From the NCBI GenBank assembly GCA_009268125.1, contig WBOU01000004.1, positions 62,001 through 126,000 on the forward strand: a stretch of 64,000 nucleotides of DNA. The letters run 5' to 3'. Positions 33,488 through 44,983 of this stretch are shown piece by piece (position 1 is the first letter of the stretch; each line of letters opens with the position of its first letter). Source of the DNA: Chloroflexia bacterium SDU3-3 (GTDB lineage Bacteria > Chloroflexota > Chloroflexia > Chloroflexales > Roseiflexaceae). The position numbers and the translations under genes are program-made. The notes under the pieces are model-generated. The model saw only the letters and a program-made list of their open reading frames with translations. It had not been told where the DNA came from and ran no database searches.

Positions 33488-33529
33488 CCCACCGGCCCCC
33501 GCCTGTCTGGCGGGGGCCGGTGGGTTTTT
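33488..33529 (+). terminator. Orphan Rho-independent terminator upstream of the amidase gene
   Basis: A perfect 16-bp stem (33488-33503 with 33509-33524), loop TGTCT, then TTTTT at 33525-33529. No plus-strand gene precedes it: the region to its left holds a minus-strand gene. It lies in the 345-bp gap before the amidase gene and could end a small RNA or attenuate the amidase-CHAT transcript. The rest of the gap contains only a possible TATACT box at 33605-33610. Confidence 0.8.
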
Positions 33530-33648: not shown

Positions 33649-35595
33649 GTGGCTACCAACGACCCAACGAGTGGCATGCCGCCGTTCATCAACCGCAGGC
33701 TCTCGATCACCGAGTGGCTCTCCTACGTTGCCGCCTACGACTTCGGCCGGATCGCGCCGACGCGGGTAGTGCTGCACCACACCTATATCCCCACCATCGA
33801 GCAGTGGCGCGGCCTGGCCACCATGCAGGGCATGCAGCGCTTCTACGGCGCCAAGGGCTGGCGATCCGGGCCGCACATCTACGTGGCCCCCGACGGCATC
33901 TGGCTGGCCACCCCTATGAAAGACATCGGCATCCACGCGGGCACCGGCAACTCGGGCACAGCGGGCGGCAAGCTGTGGTATAGCATCGGCTGCGAGATGG
34001 TGGGCTACTACGACAAGGTGCGGCCCAGCGGCGCGGTGTGGGAGGGCACCAAGGCGGTGCTAGGCGGCCTATCCAAGCGGCTAGGCATCGCGCCGCGCCA
34101 GCTGATCTCCTTCCACCGCGACTACACCAATCAGAAGAGCTGCCCCGGCTGGGCCGTGACCAAGGACTGGGTCTGGCCCGAGATCGAGGCCTGGCTGGGC
34201 AACCAGGCCGCCCCGCCCCAGCCGCCGCCGCCGGTGCAGGTGGGCACCCCCACCCCCGAGAACGAGGCCCTGCTCGACCTGCTGATGAACGAGAGCTTCC
34301 AGCGGCGCGGCGATGGCTATAACCCCGACCTGGCCTTCAACCAGTACGCCGTGCAGCACAGCCTGGGCTTCCCCACCGCCAAGGCCGCGACCCTGGCCGA
34401 CGGCGGCAAGACCTACGCCTACCAGGCCTTCGCCCGCGACACGCTCTACTGCGAGGTGCCGCGCTGGGGCGAGGTGGGCAGGCTCTCCGACCTGCTGGGC
34501 GGCAGCATCCCGCCGTCGGGGCTGGGCCGCGCGCTGCTGGATGCGACCTACCGCGCCAGCGGGGCCATCTTCCACCCCGACTGGGCCTTTCACCAGTACG
34601 CCGTAGCCGCCAAGCTCGGCCCGCCCCTGGCCGAGAGCACCAAGCTGAAGGTGGGCGGCGTCGAGTACGCCTACCAGGTCTACGCGCTCGACACGCTCTA
34701 CAACAAGATCCCCGACTGGCAGGCCATCCACCGCGTCAGCGAGCTGGCCAGCGCCAGCGACGCCGCCTCGGCCCAGCTGCGCGACGCCCTGCTGAGCGCC
34801 ACCTACCAGAAGGCGGCGGGCGTGGCCTACCACCCCGACTGGGCCTTCCACCAGATCGCGCGGAAGCTCAACCTGGGCGCGCCGCTCTCCGACTCGTACC
34901 GCGTCACATCGGGGGCCAGCCAGTACGCCATCCAGGTCTACGCCACCGACACGCTCTACAACATCATCCCGAAGTGGCAGGAGGTGCGCCGCGCGCTGCC
35001 GCTGGCCAGCGGCGGCTCGGGCGTGGTGGCGCTCTCGGCGGGGGGCGCGGTGCCCGCCGCCAAGCCACGGGCCGGTATGCAGGCCAGCACGCTGCCCGAG
35101 GACAGCGAGATCGCCGTCGTGCTCGGGCGCGGCGCGGTCTTCGAGCAGCCCGGCGCGCCCTTCCACATCGTGCGCTACCGTGTGCCCTTCGCCGCCGCCT
35201 CGGGCACCCGCAGCGGCGCACGCGCGCGCCTGCTCGTGCTGCACAGCAGCACGGGCAGCGCCGAGGAAGACCTGCGCGCCATGGCCGCGCCGGATGCCCA
35301 GAGCATGGCGCACTACTACATCACCGCCGAGGGCCAGATCTACCAGCTGGCCGACGACGACCGCGCCACCTTCCACGCGGGCATGGCCACATGGCAGGGT
35401 CGGCGGCAGAACATCAACCGCATCAGCCTGGGCATCACCGTGCAGCGCAGCACCAAGGGCTACACCGAGGCGGCAAAAAAGGCGCTGGCCTGGCTCGTCG
35501 CCACGCTGCGCGAGCGGTATAATCTGGCCCATGTTGTCCGCTGGGGCGATCTGGATGCCGACAGCCGCCCCGATGGCGCAGATCTCTCCTGGTAG
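33649..35595 (+). CDS. N-acetylmuramoyl-L-alanine amidase-like protein with two amidase_2 domains and three internal repeats
   Basis: A 648-aa protein with no signal peptide. Residues about 35-185 form an amidase_2/PGRP domain with Zn-ligand candidates His43/His44 (VVLHHTY), His156 and Cys165 (SFHRDYTNQKSCPGW). After a Pro-rich linker, three repeats of about 75 residues follow (about 205-285, 295-365, 378-448). Their consensus is YHPDWAFHQyA...LG.PL and YAyQVYA.DTLYN.iP.W; I do not recognise this repeat. A second amidase-like domain (about 520-648) has VLHSSTGS and TFHAGM, but the last His is replaced (VVRWGDLDADSRPDG). The start is GTG 33649 with GAGGAGG upstream. It lies 23 nt before the CHAT protease gene. 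Cleavage of the Mur-Ala bond is likely for the first domain. Confidence 0.8.
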   Translation: MATNDPTSGMPPFINRRLSITEWLSYVAAYDFGRIAPTRVVLHHTYIPTIEQWRGLATMQGMQRFYGAKGWRSGPHIYVAPDGIWLATPMKDIGIHAGTGNSGTAGGKLWYSIGCEMVGYYDKVRPSGAVWEGTKAVLGGLSKRLGIAPRQLISFHRDYTNQKSCPGWAVTKDWVWPEIEAWLGNQAAPPQPPPPVQVGTPTPENEALLDLLMNESFQRRGDGYNPDLAFNQYAVQHSLGFPTAKAATLADGGKTYAYQAFARDTLYCEVPRWGEVGRLSDLLGGSIPPSGLGRALLDATYRASGAIFHPDWAFHQYAVAAKLGPPLAESTKLKVGGVEYAYQVYALDTLYNKIPDWQAIHRVSELASASDAASAQLRDALLSATYQKAAGVAYHPDWAFHQIARKLNLGAPLSDSYRVTSGASQYAIQVYATDTLYNIIPKWQEVRRALPLASGGSGVVALSAGGAVPAAKPRAGMQASTLPEDSEIAVVLGRGAVFEQPGAPFHIVRYRVPFAAASGTRSGARARLLVLHSSTGSAEEDLRAMAAPDAQSMAHYYITAEGQIYQLADDDRATFHAGMATWQGRRQNINRISLGITVQRSTKGYTEAAKKALAWLVATLRERYNLAHVVRWGDLDADSRPDGADLSW

Positions 35596-35618
35596 CCCGA
35601 GATAGAGAGGAACTGCCT

Positions 35619-37847
35619 ATGCCGATTACCGCATCTCAGCTCTCATCGACGCCCTTCGTCGTCGCCACGCCAGACGAGCCGCTGGGGGCGCTGCTCGAAC
35701 GGCTGCCCGCCAGCCGCCCGGCGCGCTTCGCCAGCTTTGTCGTGATCGCCGAGCCGGGCGGCATCTTCCGCGTGCTGCGCTGGCAGGATGTGGAGGAGCG
35801 CGTGCGCAGCTGGCCCAGCGACCCGCGCGCGCTGCCGGTGGGCCAGCTGCCGCAGCTGCCCGCGCCCGTGCCCGCTGTCGATGCCGATCGCATCGGCATC
35901 CAGGCCGCCAACGAGCTGCGCGACGAGCAGAAGCCGCTGAAGGTTGTGGTGGTGCTCAAGGCTGGCCAGGTGCTGGGGCTGCTGGCCCAGCCGCTGCGCG
36001 GCGACCAGCAGATCGACGCCCCCGACCCCTTCCCGCAAAACCACATGGCCAACACCCTGCCCGATGATCCCCCGCTGGATGAGGAAGATGAAGCAGAGCA
36101 GGTCGACAAGCCAGAGCCGCAGATACAGCCGCGCACCCACACCTCCCCGGCAGAGGAAGCTGAGGCGAGCAAAGGCGTCGAGCCAGAGCCGCGCGCCCAC
36201 GACACGCCGCCAGAGCAGGCCGAGCAGCGCGTGATCAACGCGCTGCTGAAGGACCACGACAAGGGCCAGCCGCTGGCCGTGGGCACACCCTACACCCTCG
36301 TGTTCAACGTGGGTGCGCCGCAGGCCGAGGCCCTAGCCAGCGCCAGCGCCAGCCTCGGCCAGATCTTCGACGCCAGCCCCAAGGCCAAGCGCATCGAGAT
36401 CACCGTGGTGATCGACAGCGATGACCTGACCATCACCGGCAGCGACCAGGGCGTGATCGCGGTGCCGCGCAAAGGCGCATCTACCCAGGATGCCAGCTTC
36501 ACCATCACGCCCACCAAGGATGGCCCCAACGAGCTACGCGCGCTGTTTTTCGCCAACAACCGCATGTTCCAAAAAATGAAGCTGACCCTGCACGTGGGCG
36601 CAGCCCAGGCCGCCCCGATCGAGCAGCAGGCCAGCGGCAAGACGCTGCAGAGCGCCCTGGCCAGCCAGCCGCGCCCGCAGGAGATCGACCTGGTCATCCT
36701 GCGCAGGGATGCGGGCTACGAGTTCATCCTCAACAGCGGCGGTGTGAAGCGGGCCACCGTCAACCTCAGCGAGCAGCAGATCGCCGACATGACCGCCAAC
36801 GCCCGCGAGGAGCTGAAGGGCATTGTCTACGCCAAGGAGGGCGGGCGCTACCTCTACCAGTCCGCCGACACCAGCATCCCAGCCTTCGCTCACGAGCAGT
36901 CGCTCAAGGCCCTGATGGGCATCGGCACCGACCTGTTCGAGGGCCTGTTCTTCGCGCCGGGCAGCGGTGCCGACGCCAACGAGATGGGCCGCGTGCTGCG
37001 CGAGAGATCGCGCCAGAGCAAGCTGCAGATCGCGATCATCGCCGAGCGCTTCAGCTTCCCCTGGGCGCTGCTCTACGACCGCGACTACGACCCCGACCAC
37101 GTAGAGCCGGAGGGCTTCTGGGGATTTAAGCACGTGATCGAGTACACGCCCGAGTTCCGCACCGCCACGCCCCTGAACCTCACCCCCGAGATCAGCGTGG
37201 CGGGCGAGCTGGAGATCGGCTTTGTGGTCAACACCACGATCGACGACGAGCTGCGCCAAAAAGGGCTGCCGGTCGACGTGGTCAAGCCGCAGCAGGCGTT
37301 TCTGCGCCAGCTGCCCGGCGTGACGGTGAGCGAGTACACCACCAAGGCCGAGCTGATCAGCCTGCTGAGCAGCACGCAGCCCGGCCCGCAGCTGCTCTAC
37401 TTCTACTGCCACGCCGAGAGCACGCTGCCCAGCGACCCGGGCGGCGTGGATGCCTCGCAGCTCACCCTCTCCGACGGGCCGGTGACGCTGAAGGATCTGA
37501 AGCGGCTGGCCTCGCTCAGCAAGGCCGAGGAGAGCCTGCAGAGCGCTCCGCTGGTGTTTATCAACGCCTGCGAGAGCGCCGAGCTAAGCCCCTACTTCTA
37601 CGACGGGCTGGTGCCCTACCTGATCGCCAAGGGCGCGCGCGGCGTGCTGGGCACCGAAGTCAACACCCCCGCCCTGTTCGCCGCCGAGTTCGCGCGGCTG
37701 CTGCTGCAGCGCTTCGCGGCGGGCGGCCAGCCGATCGGCGAGCTGCTGCTCGACCTGCGCCGCGAGTACCTGATGGACAAGAACAACGTGATGGGCCTAG
37801 TCTATGCGCTGCACAGCGGTGCCCAGGTGGTGGTGCAGCGCATCTAG
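35619..37847 (+). CDS. CHAT-domain caspase-like protease with N-terminal CBS-like domain
   Basis: A 742-aa protein. Residues about 10-65 look like a CBS-type domain (TPFVVATPDEPLGALLERL, FVVIAEPGGIFRVL). An acidic/Pro-rich linker spans about 145-205. A beta-rich middle region (about 225-330) and an alpha/beta region (about 350-520) with AIIAERFSFPWALLYDRDYD precede the C-terminal CHAT domain. The catalytic pair is visible: His598 in YFYCHAES and Cys651 in VFINACESAEL. CHAT peptidases are caspase relatives used in bacterial immunity and cell-death circuits. The gene starts 23 nt after the amidase gene, has a GAGAGGAAC site, and ends at a terminator hairpin, so the two genes form a closed cassette. 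Its substrate and trigger are unknown. Confidence 0.85.
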   Translation: MPITASQLSSTPFVVATPDEPLGALLERLPASRPARFASFVVIAEPGGIFRVLRWQDVEERVRSWPSDPRALPVGQLPQLPAPVPAVDADRIGIQAANELRDEQKPLKVVVVLKAGQVLGLLAQPLRGDQQIDAPDPFPQNHMANTLPDDPPLDEEDEAEQVDKPEPQIQPRTHTSPAEEAEASKGVEPEPRAHDTPPEQAEQRVINALLKDHDKGQPLAVGTPYTLVFNVGAPQAEALASASASLGQIFDASPKAKRIEITVVIDSDDLTITGSDQGVIAVPRKGASTQDASFTITPTKDGPNELRALFFANNRMFQKMKLTLHVGAAQAAPIEQQASGKTLQSALASQPRPQEIDLVILRRDAGYEFILNSGGVKRATVNLSEQQIADMTANAREELKGIVYAKEGGRYLYQSADTSIPAFAHEQSLKALMGIGTDLFEGLFFAPGSGADANEMGRVLRERSRQSKLQIAIIAERFSFPWALLYDRDYDPDHVEPEGFWGFKHVIEYTPEFRTATPLNLTPEISVAGELEIGFVVNTTIDDELRQKGLPVDVVKPQQAFLRQLPGVTVSEYTTKAELISLLSSTQPGPQLLYFYCHAESTLPSDPGGVDASQLTLSDGPVTLKDLKRLASLSKAEESLQSAPLVFINACESAELSPYFYDGLVPYLIAKGARGVLGTEVNTPALFAAEFARLLLQRFAAGGQPIGELLLDLRREYLMDKNNVMGLVYALHSGAQVVVQRI

Positions 37848-37873: not shown

Positions 37874-37902
37874 AGAGGGCTAGGGTTTGCCCCTAGCCCT
37901 CT
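37874..37902 (+). terminator. Terminator hairpin after the CHAT gene
   Basis: A 12-bp stem AGAGGGCTAGGG (37874-37885) with CCCTAGCCCTCT (37891-37902), 5-nt loop, and a weak T-poor tail. Confidence 0.7.
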
Positions 37903-38787: not shown

Positions 38788-41700
38788 ATGAAACTGCCGC
38801 ACAGCTCGCCGATACTGCTTTCACTTGCCCTGATTTCCAGCCCGCTGCTCCAGCACGCTCCGCCGGTAGCTGGCCTGCCAGCCCGCGTCGCTCCGCCGCA
38901 GGCGGCCAACAGCGTGGCCTTCGCGCCGATTGTCGCCGAGGCCGCCGACAGCGGCGTGATGGCCTACACAGCAGACGAGGGCACGCGGGTCGCCGCGCTG
39001 AAGGTGCGGCTGGATACGGCGGCAGCCCAGCTGGTGACCGTCAACTACGCCACCAGCGACGGCAGCGCCAGCCAGGGAAGCGACTACACCACCACCAGCG
39101 GCACCCTCACCTTCTACCCCGGCGAGCAAGAGAAAACCCTGGGCGTACCCCTGGCCGACGACCCCAGCGCCGAGCCTGCCGAGGGCTTCCACATGGCCCT
39201 GAGCAGCCCCTCTGGCGCGTCGCTCGGCGCCCTGGCCACGGCGGATGTGACCATCCGCGCCAGCGATACGCTGGGCTTCGCCCTGCCCACCACCCAGGCC
39301 TACGAGGCGAACGGACGCGCGATCATCCCCGTGCAGCTGCAGGGCAGCTCGACCGCCGCCGTGACCGTGAGCTACACCACCAGCGACGGCAGCGCCCTCG
39401 CGGGGAGCGACTACACCGCCACCAGCGGCACCCTCACCTTCGCGCCCGGCGAGACCTGGCAGGAGATACCTGTACCAGTAACGGTGGACAGCACCAGCGA
39501 GCTGACCGAGACCTTCCTGGTGACGCTGAGCAGCCCGACCAACGCGACGCTAGCGGGCGACCTGACGCAGACGGTGGCGCTGATCGATGATCGGCTGGCC
39601 TTCCAGTCGGCGCGCTGGGATGAGCTGGCGGGCGACGGCGACAGCGCGGCGGACGCGGGCGAGCAGGTGGCGGTGGCGGTCGCGGTCAGCAACTTGGCCC
39701 CGGCGGCGACCCAGCCCTTCACTAGCAGCCTGCGGCTGATCGGCGGGGATGCGACGCTGGAGGTGGCGACCGCCAGCTACGGGGCAATTGCGGGCAAGGG
39801 GGCGGCCTACGCTGCCGCGCCCTTCACGCTCACGGTCGGCCCAACCGCGCAGGCGGGCGACCTGATCGTGCTGGAGCAGGCACTGTTCACGCCGGGCCAG
39901 ACCACCCGCTTCCCGCTGCGCGTCCCCGTGGGTGTGGCCCGCCTCGGCCCAGTCGAAACCTACAGCGGCACCTTCCCCACCCCGCCGTGGCCGATCACAC
40001 ACGGCGCTGGCGTGAGCGATACGCTCGATATCATCCTCTACCCGCCGGGCATCACCACAAGCCGGATGGTGGGCGACCTGAACGTGAGGGTGGCCGCCAC
40101 CCACCGCGACACCAGCCAGCTGCGCATGCAGCTCACCGCAGGCACGGTGGCCGCCACCCTCTTCGACGTTGGCGACGCCAAGGGCGCGAACCTCGACAGC
40201 GTCACCTTCGACGACAGCGCCCCCGCCACCATGGCCAGCTCGCCTGCGCCGATGGCCGGCAGCTACCAGCCGCGCACCCCGCTGGCCGTCTTCCAGAGCC
40301 TGCGGGTAAACAACCTCAGCTACGCGACTCTGTCTATCAAGGATCAGAACCCGGCGGCCAACCAGGGCGTGCTGACCAACTGGGATGTCGACATCCGTCC
40401 CGTGGTGCCCTCCTGTGCGCCTGCGGGCAGCAACATCTGCATCAGCTGGGATCTACCCTACACCACCGTGACCGAGGGCGACGCCTCGGTGGTGGTAAAC
40501 ATGCGGCTAAACGTCCCAGCACCTCACACCCTAACGGTCAGCTCCTCAACCCTGGACAGCGTCGCATTCAAGGGGAAAGACTTCACCGGCAGGCAGGCGC
40601 AGGTCACCTTTGCCCCTGGTGAGATGAACAAGTCCTTCCAGGTCAAGATCACGAACGATACGCTGAGCGAGCCGCCCGAGTCGTTTCATATCGGCTTCCT
40701 CTCTCTCGATAGGGTTGAGGTCGATCGAATGATGACGCAGGTCATCATCTTCGACAACAACGACTCGCCCCCCACGCTCTCATTCATACCCACAAACGGG
40801 TTCAACGAAAACGACTCCTCGCAGAGACAAGGGCTGCTGCTCAGCGCGCTCTCGGGCTACCCGTTGCGGGTCGACTATCGGCTAGAGTCGGGCACTGCCG
40901 TGGTGGGCAGCGACTTCGCGCCCACCAGCGGCACGCTGGTGTTCCAACCCTACCAGCAGTCGGCCAGTGTGCCGCTGCCGATCTTCGACGACGCGCTGCC
41001 CGAGCCAGATGAGAAGCTCAGCATCATCCTGAGCAACCCGGTCTATTTCTCCGCTGGCGGCCAGCAGTCAAAGAGCGTCACGATTCTCGCCAACGACACG
41101 CTCGCCTTCTCCTCCAGCTCGCACAGTGTGTACGAGAGCGGCAGCGCCTCGCTGAGCGTTGGCCTGAGCGCCACCTCGGCCCAGACCGTCACTGTCGACA
41201 TCAGCACCGAGGGCGGCGGCACGGCCACGCCCGGCAGCGACTACACACCCGCCAGCGGCACGCTGGTGTTTGCGCCGGGGGAGACATCCAAAACCTTCAA
41301 CTTTCCCATCCTCGATGATGCGATCGCCGAGGCGAACGAGACCATCCTGGTGCGCCTCAGCAACGCGAACAACGCGGGTGTACCCCTCGCGGGCGTATTC
41401 GCCACCGTGAACATCCTGGAGAATGACTCGATTACCTTCCCGGCACCCTCAAAAAGCGCGACCGAGCGCAGCACCAACGTCAGCATCACCGTGCAGCTGA
41501 ACAGCTACTCGTCGATCCCCGTGACCGTGCAGTACGCCACGGTTGGCGGCAGCGCCACGCCAGGCAGCGACTACACGCCCACCAGCGGCACGCTGACCAT
41601 CTCGCCAGGCGCGACCAGCCGCACGATCAGCGTGCCCATTCTGGAGGATAGCCTGGCCGAGCCAGATGAGACCATTAACATCGCGCTGAGCAACCCTACC

Positions 41701-42078
41701 GGGGCGATGCTGGGCACCACATCCGTCGCCACCATCACCATCCCGGCCAACGATCTGATCACCCTGAGCGGGGCGGCGGGCGATGAACTGGGAACTCTGC
41801 CGGTGGTGACGGTGCGCCTGAAGGCCACATCGTTTCAGGCGGTGACGGTGAACTACGCCACCAGCGACGGCACGGCCACCGCAGGGAGCGACTACACGCC
41901 CACCAGCGGCACGCTGACCATCCCCGCCGGTTCAAGCTCGCAGTCTTTTACCATCCCGATCCTCGACGACACGCTGACCGAGCCGGAGGAGACGATCATC
42001 GTGACGCTCAGCAGCCCGACAAATGCCGAGCTAGACAGCACGAGCTCGATCGGCGTGCCCATCCGAGCCAGCGACTAG
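38788..42078 (+). CDS. Secreted Calx-beta repeat protein with a P/Homo B domain
   Basis: A 1096-aa exported protein with an N-terminal signal peptide (residues 1-28). I count seven Calx-beta modules, each with the pattern V.Y.T.dGsA..GsDYt..sGtLtf.pGe....i.VPi.dD...EpdEtf...LS.P. Two precede a central insert that contains a conserved beta region and, at about residues 391-541, a P/Homo B (proprotein-convertase-like) domain (GDLNVRVAATHRD, LRVNNLSYATLSIKD, GVLTNWDVDI). Five modules follow. Calx-beta folds bind calcium and serve in adhesion. No sortase motif or C-terminal anchor is seen. GGAGG precedes the ATG. It is a paralogue of the next gene. Confidence 0.88.
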   Translation: MKLPHSSPILLSLALISSPLLQHAPPVAGLPARVAPPQAANSVAFAPIVAEAADSGVMAYTADEGTRVAALKVRLDTAAAQLVTVNYATSDGSASQGSDYTTTSGTLTFYPGEQEKTLGVPLADDPSAEPAEGFHMALSSPSGASLGALATADVTIRASDTLGFALPTTQAYEANGRAIIPVQLQGSSTAAVTVSYTTSDGSALAGSDYTATSGTLTFAPGETWQEIPVPVTVDSTSELTETFLVTLSSPTNATLAGDLTQTVALIDDRLAFQSARWDELAGDGDSAADAGEQVAVAVAVSNLAPAATQPFTSSLRLIGGDATLEVATASYGAIAGKGAAYAAAPFTLTVGPTAQAGDLIVLEQALFTPGQTTRFPLRVPVGVARLGPVETYSGTFPTPPWPITHGAGVSDTLDIILYPPGITTSRMVGDLNVRVAATHRDTSQLRMQLTAGTVAATLFDVGDAKGANLDSVTFDDSAPATMASSPAPMAGSYQPRTPLAVFQSLRVNNLSYATLSIKDQNPAANQGVLTNWDVDIRPVVPSCAPAGSNICISWDLPYTTVTEGDASVVVNMRLNVPAPHTLTVSSSTLDSVAFKGKDFTGRQAQVTFAPGEMNKSFQVKITNDTLSEPPESFHIGFLSLDRVEVDRMMTQVIIFDNNDSPPTLSFIPTNGFNENDSSQRQGLLLSALSGYPLRVDYRLESGTAVVGSDFAPTSGTLVFQPYQQSASVPLPIFDDALPEPDEKLSIILSNPVYFSAGGQQSKSVTILANDTLAFSSSSHSVYESGSASLSVGLSATSAQTVTVDISTEGGGTATPGSDYTPASGTLVFAPGETSKTFNFPILDDAIAEANETILVRLSNANNAGVPLAGVFATVNILENDSITFPAPSKSATERSTNVSITVQLNSYSSIPVTVQYATVGGSATPGSDYTPTSGTLTISPGATSRTISVPILEDSLAEPDETINIALSNPTGAMLGTTSVATITIPANDLITLSGAAGDELGTLPVVTVRLKATSFQAVTVNYATSDGTATAGSDYTPTSGTLTIPAGSSSQSFTIPILDDTLTEPEETIIVTLSSPTNAELDSTSSIGVPIRASD

Positions 42079-42142
42079 CAGCCGCTACAACGCTGTGACA
42101 CCAAGCTATATTCTGGCGTGCAACCACGCCGATGGAGGCACT

Positions 42143-44983
42143 ATGAGCTTGCCGCACACCGCTCCAGCGCTCTTTTCACTTGCGCTGGTTCTCGCCCCGC
42201 TGCTCGTGCCGAGCGCCGCCGCACACGGAAGCGCGGCCCCGCCGCACGCCATGCCGCAGCAAGCAGCCAACACCGTCTCGTTCGTACCCATCGGGGCCGA
42301 GCCAGCGCCACCAGGCGCGGCCATGGCCTACGCCGCACAGGAGGGCGCGCGCCTGGCGGCCCTGAAGGTGCGGCTGGCCAGCCCCGCCACACAGGTGGGC
42401 AGCGTGGCCTACACCAGCGAGGATGCCAGCGCCACCGCCGCAGGCGACTACGCCGCCGCTAGCGGCACGCTCACCTTCTACCCCGGCGAGCAGGAGAAGA
42501 TCCTCGGCGTGCCGATCGCCGACGATGCCCAGCCCGAGGGCGACGAGCTGTTCCGCGTGGCGCTGAGCGCGCCGAGCGGGCTGGCCCTGGGCGAGCGCCC
42601 CACCGCCGAGGTGACCATCGGTGCCAGCGACACCATCGGATTCGCGCAGCCCGCCACCACCGCCTACGAGATCAGCGGCAGGGCGGTCATCCCCGTGCAG
42701 CTCCAGGGCAGCTCGGCGGTGACGGTGACGGTGGACTACGCCACCAGCCCCGGCAGCGCCAGCGCCGCCGATTTCACCGCAGCCGTAGGCACGCTGGTGT
42801 TCCCGCCCGGCGAAACCTGGCGGGAGATCCCAGTGACACTCAAGATTGACAGCACCAGCGAGCCGACCGAGACCTTCAGCCTGAGCCTGAGCAACCCGGT
42901 GGGCGCGGCGCTAACCGGCGGCGCAGCCCAGAACGTGGATGTTGTGGACAGCCGCCTAGCCCTGCTCGCGCTGGGCTGGGAGGACAGCGCGGGCGACCGG
43001 GACGGCATCCCCGATCCCGGCGAGCAGCTCGGCATCACCGTGACGCTGAGCAACCTGAGCACCCAGGCCAGCCAGCCCTTCACCAGCAGCCTGCGCCTGA
43101 TCGGCGGGGGAGGCACGGTGGATGTGGCCAGCGCCAGCTACCCAGCCATCGTCGGGAAGGCCAGCGCCGCCGCCAGCTTCCGCATCACCGTCGACGCGGC
43201 GACCGCGCCCGGCACCATCCTCCAGCTTGAGCAGACCGTGCGGAGCGCGGGGCGGGATTTCACCATCCCCATCCGCATCCCGGTCGGCGCGGTGGGTGGG
43301 CCGCTCTGCGCGCCGCTGGGCACCACCACATGCGTGCGCTGGGTACGCCCCGCCAACCCCGTGACCGAGAGCGATCAGTCGGCGGTCTTCGACATGCGGC
43401 TGAGCGCACCCTCGCCGCTGAGCGTATCTGTCTCCTACATCCTCAGCTATGGCAATGCCCAGGTGGGGCGCGACCTCACCGGCAAGGAGGGCACCGTGAC
43501 CTTCGCGCCTGGCGAGATGAACAAGTCGTTCCGCGTCAGTATCACCGACGACATCTTCAACGAGCCTGCCGAGCAGGTGGCGATGAGGATGTACAACCCA
43601 TCTGGCCTCGCCATAGCAGGGCCAGTCAGCAGCGAGCTGGTGATCTTCGACAACGGCGACCCGATACCGAGCGTCTCGCTGCGGCCTGGCGGGGAAGGCG
43701 TATCAGAAGGGTCGCAGTACGGGGGGTTCTCGCTCGCGCTCAGCAGCTACTCGGGCTACCGCGTGCGGGTGGACTACGCCGTCACCTCGGGCAGCGCCAT
43801 CGCCGGGGAAGATTTCACGCCAGTCACCGGCACGCTCGTCTTCGACCCAAACGAAAGCTCAGAGTACGTGTCCTTACCAATATTCGATGATACGCTGCCA
43901 GAGCCAGATGAGACCTACAGCGTCATGCTGAGCAGCCCTGTCTATGCGACGCTCGGCAGACAGTCCGTGTCCGAGCGGATCATCAAGGCCAACGACACCA
44001 TCTCATTCGGGGGCGAGACTGGCGGCACCACTATGGAGCGCTATGGTGCTGCGGGGGTCTCGGTCTACCTGAACGCGGCCTCGGCGGTACCGGTGACGGT
44101 GGACTACACCACCGAGGGCGGCGGCACCGCCAGCCCAGGTGCCGACTACACGCCCATCACCGGCACGCTGACCTTCGCGCCCGGCCAGACCCAGAAGAAC
44201 ATCAGCATACCGATCATCAACGATAGCGCCCCCGAGGATGCCGAGACGATCATCGTACGGCTCAGCAACCCGACAGGAGCGGGGCTGGCCTATCCCAACG
44301 CTCCATACACCATCACCATCCAGGGCACAACGCGAGTGGAGTTCAGCAACACCAGGCTCACCGCCAGCGAGCGGGGCAACAATCTGGCCGTGACCGTGCG
44401 CCTGAGCGCTCCCTCCATCAGCGAGGTGAGCATCCACTACGCCACCGTGGGCGGCAGCGCCACCGCCGGTGGCGACTACACCGCCGTCAGCGGCAGCCTC
44501 ACCTTCCCCCCAGGCGTGACAACGCGGACAATCAGCGTGCCCATCCGCGAGGATAGCCAGGCGGAAGGCGACGAGACGATCACGCTTGCGCTGAGCAGCC
44601 CAGAGGATGCTATCCTCGGCATCTCCTCCATCGCTACCATCACCATTCCGGCCAACGATCTGATCACGATGGAGAACTGGAACGCGGGCGACGAGGGAAG
44701 CTTTGGCCGCATCGCCGTGCGGCTGAGCGCATCTTCCTACCAGCAGATCACCGTGGACTACACCTTCGTGGATGGCACCGCTAAGGCCGGGGTGGACTAC
44801 CCGCCCACCAGCGGCACCCTGGTCTTCCCGCCTGGCTCGGTGATGAAGGAGCTGATCATCCCCATCCTGGATGATAGCGAGCCCGAGGGCGAGGAGACGG
44901 TGATCATCCGATTCAGCAACCCAGTCAACGCCGAGCTGGGGACGATGAGGGCGATCAGTGTGCCGATCCGCGAGAGCGATTAG
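42143..44983 (+). CDS. Secreted Calx-beta repeat protein (tandem paralogue, no P domain)
   Basis: A 946-aa exported protein with a signal peptide (residues about 1-32, cleavage near SAAAHG). It has the same order of seven Calx-beta modules as its upstream neighbour and the same conserved insert after module 2 (QPFTSSLRLIGGGGT), but lacks the P/Homo B domain. The first 60 codons and even the leader are alike in both genes (cgcc-aatgGAGG versus cgcc-gatgGAGG), showing a tandem duplication. ATG 42143 is chosen over GTG 42095 because of GGAGG about 5 nt upstream and alignment with the paralogue. Confidence 0.88.
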   Translation: MSLPHTAPALFSLALVLAPLLVPSAAAHGSAAPPHAMPQQAANTVSFVPIGAEPAPPGAAMAYAAQEGARLAALKVRLASPATQVGSVAYTSEDASATAAGDYAAASGTLTFYPGEQEKILGVPIADDAQPEGDELFRVALSAPSGLALGERPTAEVTIGASDTIGFAQPATTAYEISGRAVIPVQLQGSSAVTVTVDYATSPGSASAADFTAAVGTLVFPPGETWREIPVTLKIDSTSEPTETFSLSLSNPVGAALTGGAAQNVDVVDSRLALLALGWEDSAGDRDGIPDPGEQLGITVTLSNLSTQASQPFTSSLRLIGGGGTVDVASASYPAIVGKASAAASFRITVDAATAPGTILQLEQTVRSAGRDFTIPIRIPVGAVGGPLCAPLGTTTCVRWVRPANPVTESDQSAVFDMRLSAPSPLSVSVSYILSYGNAQVGRDLTGKEGTVTFAPGEMNKSFRVSITDDIFNEPAEQVAMRMYNPSGLAIAGPVSSELVIFDNGDPIPSVSLRPGGEGVSEGSQYGGFSLALSSYSGYRVRVDYAVTSGSAIAGEDFTPVTGTLVFDPNESSEYVSLPIFDDTLPEPDETYSVMLSSPVYATLGRQSVSERIIKANDTISFGGETGGTTMERYGAAGVSVYLNAASAVPVTVDYTTEGGGTASPGADYTPITGTLTFAPGQTQKNISIPIINDSAPEDAETIIVRLSNPTGAGLAYPNAPYTITIQGTTRVEFSNTRLTASERGNNLAVTVRLSAPSISEVSIHYATVGGSATAGGDYTAVSGSLTFPPGVTTRTISVPIREDSQAEGDETITLALSSPEDAILGISSIATITIPANDLITMENWNAGDEGSFGRIAVRLSASSYQQITVDYTFVDGTAKAGVDYPPTSGTLVFPPGSVMKELIIPILDDSEPEGEETVIIRFSNPVNAELGTMRAISVPIRESD

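What the first reader, a model, noticed from the sequence alone, without database searches (positions are those of the whole stretch)
33649..37847. Two-gene cassette: repeat-bearing peptidoglycan amidase plus CHAT caspase-like protease
Seen: a 648-aa protein with an intact amidase_2 domain (His43/44, His156, Cys165), three unknown repeats of about 75 aa and a second degenerate amidase domain. It lies 23 nt from a CHAT protease with an intact His598/Cys651 pair and is closed by its own terminator. Known: CHAT proteases act in bacterial immunity and programmed cell death, often by cutting a neighbour; amidases can lyse the cell from inside. Inference: the amidase could be a latent lytic effector activated or restrained by the protease, with the repeats or the degenerate domain as sensor or inhibitor. 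Neither protein has a signal peptide, which fits an intracellular latent effector better than wall housekeeping.
Basis: partly seen in the sequence, partly recalled or inferred. Interest (0 to 1): 0.8.

Follow-up and report, generated by a model that had tools for sequence, protein, structure and literature searches.

The report
Wall-cutting enzyme paired with caspase-like protease
In one family of green non-sulfur bacteria, a wall-cutting enzyme that lacks an export signal is inherited next to a caspase-like protease carrying a likely nucleotide-sensor domain, which suggests a regulated self-lysis switch, but neither the cutting of one protein by the other nor lysis has been shown.

Summary
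Both genes are real and intact at the stated coordinates. The pair sits next to each other, in the same order and on the same strand, in 12 genomes of the window's family (7 genera, Roseiflexaceae-like), at a fixed chromosomal site. It is not in a defence island.

The reading is only partly supported. The amidase is the older gene: 51 of 158 genomes of the class carry a relative of it, and most of those have no CHAT neighbour. The degenerate second amidase domain is present with or without CHAT, so it is not a CHAT-specific inhibitor. The 75-residue repeats are an undescribed module shared by several signal-peptide-less wall hydrolases of the order (amidase, M15, M23, glucosaminidase), so they look like wall-binding repeats. 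The likely sensor is on the protease: a tandem CBS (Bateman) module, an Ig-like domain, then CHAT.

Within the family, lineages without CHAT have strongly diverged amidases while a control gene (NuoD) has not. I read the pair as a lineage-specific operon in which a ligand-gated CHAT protease controls an endolysin-like, cytosol-retained amidase. That step is inferred. An ordinary wall or recycling enzyme remains equally likely. No published description was found.

The parts
33649..35595 (+). Leaderless N-acetylmuramoyl-L-alanine amidase gene (648 aa)
33760..34176 (+). N-terminal Amidase_2 domain, metal ligands His43, His156, Cys165 plus Glu116 and Lys163, invariant in the properly aligned orthologues
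34270..34494 (+). Repeat 1 (residues 208-282), unnamed 75-aa module
34522..34746 (+). Repeat 2 (residues 292-366)
34777..34995 (+). Repeat 3 (residues 377-449)
35161..35592 (+). C-terminal pseudo-amidase (Amidase_2 fold, two of three metal ligands lost)
35619..37847 (+). CHAT (caspase-like) protease gene (742 aa)
35619..35993 (+). N-terminal tandem CBS (Bateman-like) module, residues 1-125; probable small-ligand sensor
35994..36218 (+). Acidic low-complexity linker (residues 126-200, pLDDT about 30)
36222..36602 (+). Ig-like beta-sandwich (residues 202-328)
37164..37844 (+). CHAT protease domain (residues 516-742), His598 and Cys651
37874..37902 (+). 12-bp hairpin after the CHAT stop, no T run
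33488..33529 (+). Strong intrinsic terminator upstream of the amidase, separating it from anything before it

Best explanation
A vertically inherited two-gene unit of Roseiflexaceae. Gene 1 is an endolysin-like amidase made without an export signal: an active-looking amidase domain, three wall-hydrolase-associated repeats and a non-catalytic amidase-fold domain that probably binds peptidoglycan. Gene 2 is a caspase-fold (CHAT) protease whose activity is probably gated by a small ligand, most likely an adenine nucleotide, bound to its N-terminal CBS pair. Proposed mechanism: a change in ligand (energy or stress state) activates the protease, which then acts on the amidase, or on whatever keeps it in the cytosol or inactive, so that wall cleavage follows. 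Shown here: both genes intact, pairing conserved, catalytic residues conserved, no signal peptide, housekeeping location. Supported but weaker: the CBS identity, and the functional link inferred from divergence of the amidase where CHAT is absent. Inferred only: the ligand, the cleavage, the wall binding by the repeats, and lysis.
For: Pair adjacent in G000, G002-G006, G009, G010, G012, G015, G017, G019, same order and strand, gaps about 0-875 nt. CHAT dyad intact in all 14 copies checked. CBS profile: 10 of 15 PDB hits are named CBS proteins, the best one over the whole module (E 0.0077). CHAT fold: SAVED-CHAT Z 12.0, Craspase TPR-CHAT Z 11.5. Same-genome M23 controls mostly have an N-terminal hydrophobic segment; the amidase and its orthologues do not. 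The repeats recur with M15, M23, glucosaminidase and other amidase domains. In CHAT-less members of the family the amidase sits on branches of about 1.9 against 0.01-0.45 for CHAT-plus rows and repeat identity falls to 35-43% from about 65%, while NuoD identity is about the same (73-76% against 75-77%).
Against: The sister family (f4) keeps a well-conserved amidase with no CHAT next to it, so the amidase has a CHAT-independent job. No conserved linker motif marks the CHAT-plus amidases, although Craspase orthologues are also reported to cut a non-conserved site (PMC11106740). In genus g8 the pseudo-amidase and the CHAT gene are both missing between repeat 3 and the globin gene, which one deletion could explain. 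The tree flags long branches meeting for G001 and g8. No direct evidence of interaction.
Confidence: 0.35

Rival explanations
1. The amidase is an ordinary Chloroflexales wall enzyme (cytosolic muropeptide recycling, or export by a non-classical route). The CHAT protease next to it is a co-transcribed regulator or a protease with an unrelated target.
For: Orthologues in 51 of 158 class genomes, mostly without CHAT. In f4 the neighbour is a GAF-GAF histidine kinase, with or without TerC. The repeat family is broad and wall-related. C-terminal domain nearest AmpD, a cytosolic recycling amidase.
Against: Pairing kept in 7 genera. Amidase diverges in family members without CHAT while NuoD does not. 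No signal peptide, unlike most M23 enzymes of the same genome.
Confidence: 0.35
2. An abortive-infection anti-phage system: CHAT is activated by phage and the amidase lyses the cell before phage matures.
For: CHAT proteases act in CRISPR-linked immunity (PMC9729208; solved SAVED-CHAT filament). Leaderless lysin-like partner.
Against: Fixed housekeeping locus beside complex I and globin in several genera. No PADLOC match for either protein. Neighbours not defence genes apart from generic or weak hits. Vertical rather than patchy inheritance.
Confidence: 0.1
3. The leaderless hydrolases are cargo or helpers of a contractile injection system.
For: Sheath genes exist in 16 of 40 relatives, two in the window's genome.
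Against: Several genomes with the pair (G006, G009, G012, G017) or with the amidase alone (g8) show no sheath match, and no sheath gene was found on the contig that holds the pair except in the single-contig genome G002, where it is 640 kb away.
Confidence: 0.05
4. Domesticated phage endolysin gene.
For: Architecture (leaderless catalytic domain plus repeats) matches endolysins; PHROG endolysin hits to the amidase domains.
Against: No related phage record or viral contig. Conserved chromosomal orthologues over two families.
Confidence: 0.1

Closest known systems
Craspase (gRAMP plus TPR-CHAT, substrate Csx30)
   Same: CHAT-fold cysteine protease, regulated by another domain or protein, with its substrate encoded nearby
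   Different: Here a CBS pair and an Ig-like domain replace TPR; the neighbour is a wall amidase; no CRISPR link was tested
SAVED-CHAT (CRISPR type III-linked protease filament)
   Same: CHAT domain fused to a ligand-sensing module; best structural match (Z 12.0)
   Different: Sensor is CBS-like, not SAVED; no cyclic-nucleotide system seen beside it
Metacaspase plus Amidase_2 fusions and operon (PMC3501461: Polaromonas, Nitrosococcus, Chitinophaga, Desulfobacterium fusions; Geobacter operon)
   Same: Caspase-fold protease linked to a wall amidase; programmed lysis was suggested there too
   Different: Those are metacaspases (Peptidase_C14), mostly single polypeptides; here CHAT, two genes, with repeats and pseudo-amidase, in Chloroflexota
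Bacterial gasdermin plus protease operons (own knowledge)
   Same: Two-gene logic: latent lytic protein beside a caspase-like protease
   Different: Effector here is a peptidoglycan amidase, not a pore former; cleavage not shown
Phage endolysins of the Amidase_2 type
   Same: Leaderless catalytic domain followed by repeats
   Different: Chromosomal, conserved, no phage relatives found; extra non-catalytic amidase domain

Membership tests
CHAT protease family (PF12770) | Profile match above curated cut-off | tested here: met
   52.3 bits against cut-off 24
CHAT protease family (PF12770) | Catalytic His and Cys conserved | tested here: met
   His598 and Cys651; dyad kept in 14 of 14 copies
CHAT protease family (PF12770) | Caspase-like fold | tested here: met
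   Z 12.0 to 8tl0 and about 9 to caspases, from a model of modest confidence
CHAT protease family (PF12770) | Proteolytic activity on a partner | not testable with these tools
   needs biochemistry
Amidase_2 zinc amidase | Profile match and zinc ligands in the N-terminal domain | tested here: met
Amidase_2 zinc amidase | Zinc ligands in the C-terminal domain | tested here: not met
   Second His and Cys/Asp lost in all orthologues inspected
Tandem CBS (Bateman) module in the CHAT protein | Sequence-profile similarity to CBS pairs of known structure | tested here: met
   10 of 15 hits are named CBS proteins, best E 0.0077 over the whole module; each hit alone is marginal
Tandem CBS (Bateman) module in the CHAT protein | Fold match of the module by itself | tested here: inconclusive
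   Whole-model search was filled by the CHAT and Ig domains
Craspase or SAVED-CHAT type protease | TPR or SAVED domain fused to CHAT | tested here: not met
   No such Pfam match in P0002 up to E 1
Known anti-phage defence system | Match to a catalogued defence protein and location in a defence island | tested here: not met
Phage endolysin | Leaderless lysin in a phage genome or prophage | tested here: not met
   Leaderless yes; no phage or viral relatives; chromosomal context

The most novel reading that the evidence does not exclude
A bacterial cell-death switch of a new combination: a nucleotide-sensing CBS-Ig-CHAT protease that proteolytically releases or activates a latent, cytosolic, endolysin-like amidase, the wall-cutting counterpart of the gasdermin-protease pair, used for programmed lysis in filamentous Chloroflexota.
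Probability: 0.2. Interest if true: 0.85.

Novelty: new variant of a known kind. Interest (0 to 1): 0.5.

Why it matters
If the protease controls the amidase, it would give bacteria a caspase-to-wall-lysis pathway with an identifiable metabolic trigger, parallel to caspase-to-gasdermin death. It would also help explain why Chloroflexales keep many wall hydrolases without export signals. Even without that, the work defines an undescribed 75-residue repeat that recurs with at least four kinds of wall hydrolase.

Tried and rejected
Defence-island reading: neighbours are complex I, globin, GH42 and a methyltransferase; PADLOC gives nothing for the pair. Phage origin: no hits in viral contigs or phage records. 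Contractile-injection cargo: sheath genes absent from several genomes with the pair. Identity of the repeat: no Pfam family up to E 10 in 18 repeats, apart from one 0.049 chance-like hit; only marginal, unrelated PDB sequence hits. A paper on repeats in Roseiflexus amidases (ASRAH domains, PMC2739507) describes an all-beta domain in secreted proteins, which does not fit this repeat (helix-helix-strand-strand-helix in a low-confidence model). Structure of the amidase: AlphaFold with three sequences failed (pLDDT 37). Search for a CHAT-specific cleavage motif in the amidase linker: none seen. Extra conservation of the pseudo-amidase in CHAT-plus genomes: difference small once compared within clades (53.8 against 48.7% mean identity), so not used as evidence. 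No Rfam match in the window. Conserved partner for unpaired CHAT relatives in f4: none found.

Full report
Observation. Two forward genes lie at 33649-35595 (648 aa) and 35619-37847 (742 aa), 23 nt apart. Pfam finds Amidase_2 twice in the first and CHAT in the second. The three repeats score 95-110 bits against a profile built from them and their relatives. The C-terminal amidase domain has lost two of the three metal ligands. The 'own terminator' is a 12-bp hairpin without a T run.

Conservation of the pair. The genome is a Chloroflexota genome close to Roseiflexaceae MAGs. In the window's family the two genes are neighbours, amidase first, same strand, in twelve genomes of seven genera; where both ends could be placed, the gap is about 0-875 nt (G015). 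In the 158 class genomes, 51 carry the amidase at E 1e-60 or better and only 22 any CHAT relative at 1e-30 or better. In a 400-genome sample of the phylum, all CHAT relatives at E 1e-20 or better lie in the same order. The amidase is therefore the wider and probably older gene.

Location. In the window and in other genera of the family the locus lies by a truncated globin and the nuo (complex I) genes. In genus g8 the amidase ends after repeat 3 and the globin gene follows at once, with neither pseudo-amidase nor CHAT. This is a fixed chromosomal site in those genera, not a mobile or defence island; in Roseiflexus-like genomes the neighbours differ. In the sister family f4 the amidase often follows a GAF-GAF histidine kinase, with or without a TerC gene between.

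Signal peptides. None of the amidase orthologues has an N-terminal hydrophobic stretch, while five of seven M23 enzymes in the same genome do (a hydropathy scan, with start codons taken as the first in frame).

The repeats. A 75-position profile finds 1-3 copies in proteins carrying Amidase_2, M15 carboxypeptidase, M23 and glucosaminidase-like domains across the order. No Pfam family matches. Recurrence with different wall hydrolases points to substrate or wall targeting; this is inference.

The protease. Its first 125 residues form a CBS-like pair: a nine-sequence profile retrieves mainly CBS proteins from the PDB (10 of 15 named so), the best one along the entire module, though each E-value is marginal. 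Residues 202-328 are an Ig-like sandwich, and 516-742 the CHAT domain, nearest SAVED-CHAT and Craspase TPR-CHAT (model confidence modest). The His-Cys dyad is kept in every paired copy read, which argues that the protease is under selection to be active. A CBS pair commonly binds adenine nucleotides (own knowledge), which suggests an energy or stress input.

Evidence for a functional link. On the amidase tree the CHAT label needs two changes, against 9.3 on average for shuffled labels. Members of the family without CHAT (G001 and genus g8) sit on branches of about 1.9 changes per site, while CHAT-plus members have 0.01-0.45. Repeat identity between the groups is only 35-43%, against about 65% among CHAT-plus genera. 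NuoD from the same genomes shows no such difference. This is consistent with relaxed or changed constraint after loss of CHAT. Caveats: perhaps a single event, a long-branch warning, and one contiguous deletion could have removed both pseudo-amidase and CHAT in g8. The sister family keeps a conserved amidase without CHAT, so the relation is not obligatory.

Mechanism. The best-supported reading is a ligand-gated CHAT protease acting on an endolysin-like amidase or on its restraint. Shown: genes, pairing, intact catalytic residues, lack of signal peptides. Inferred: ligand, cleavage, release and lysis. An ordinary wall or recycling amidase with an incidental or merely regulatory protease neighbour is about as likely. 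Anti-phage defence is less likely given location and inheritance.

Known relatives. Metacaspase-Amidase_2 fusions and one operon were reported in 2012 with the same suggestion of programmed lysis (PMC3501461). CHAT proteases of Craspase and SAVED-CHAT are the nearest characterised enzymes. Craspase orthologues cut a non-conserved site (PMC11106740, title), so the lack of a conserved linker motif is not evidence against cleavage. Paper searches for this pair or for a CBS-CHAT protease returned nothing; that library lacks most subscription journals.

Noticed in passing
L097, L098, L100, L103, L104, L110, L115, L116, L064: The 75-aa repeat recurs in wall hydrolases without an evident signal peptide and with different catalytic domains (Amidase_2, M15, M23, glucosaminidase) across Chloroflexales; L116 starts at a contig end, so its N terminus is uncertain. 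Not in Pfam.
   Followed up: yes
L117, L125, L126, L127 (and L056, L120): In the sister family the amidase lies close downstream of a GAF-GAF-HisKA_2 histidine kinase, sometimes with a TerC gene between, instead of beside CHAT.
   Followed up: partly
window 33488-33529: A very strong forward-strand terminator (local fold -55.4 kcal/mol, z -6.2) with no forward gene before it, about 120 nt upstream of the amidase; could end a small RNA or act as an attenuator. Not seen by eye in the upstream sequence of L043 or L044.
   Followed up: partly
L135 143-6787: A related CBS-like plus CHAT protein lies beside a NACHT-HEAT protein of 1262 aa, resembling a conflict-system locus.
   Followed up: no
L113 2263-6153: A 1296-aa protein with two CHAT domains in tandem, next to a glycoside hydrolase.
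   Followed up: no
G000:C3:438353 and G000:C11:21972: Two phage-sheath genes in the window's genome, suggesting contractile injection systems or tailed prophage.
   Followed up: no
window 38788-44983: Two large neighbouring related proteins; the first (1096 aa) carries seven Calx-beta stretches and starts with a signal-peptide-like segment.
   Followed up: no
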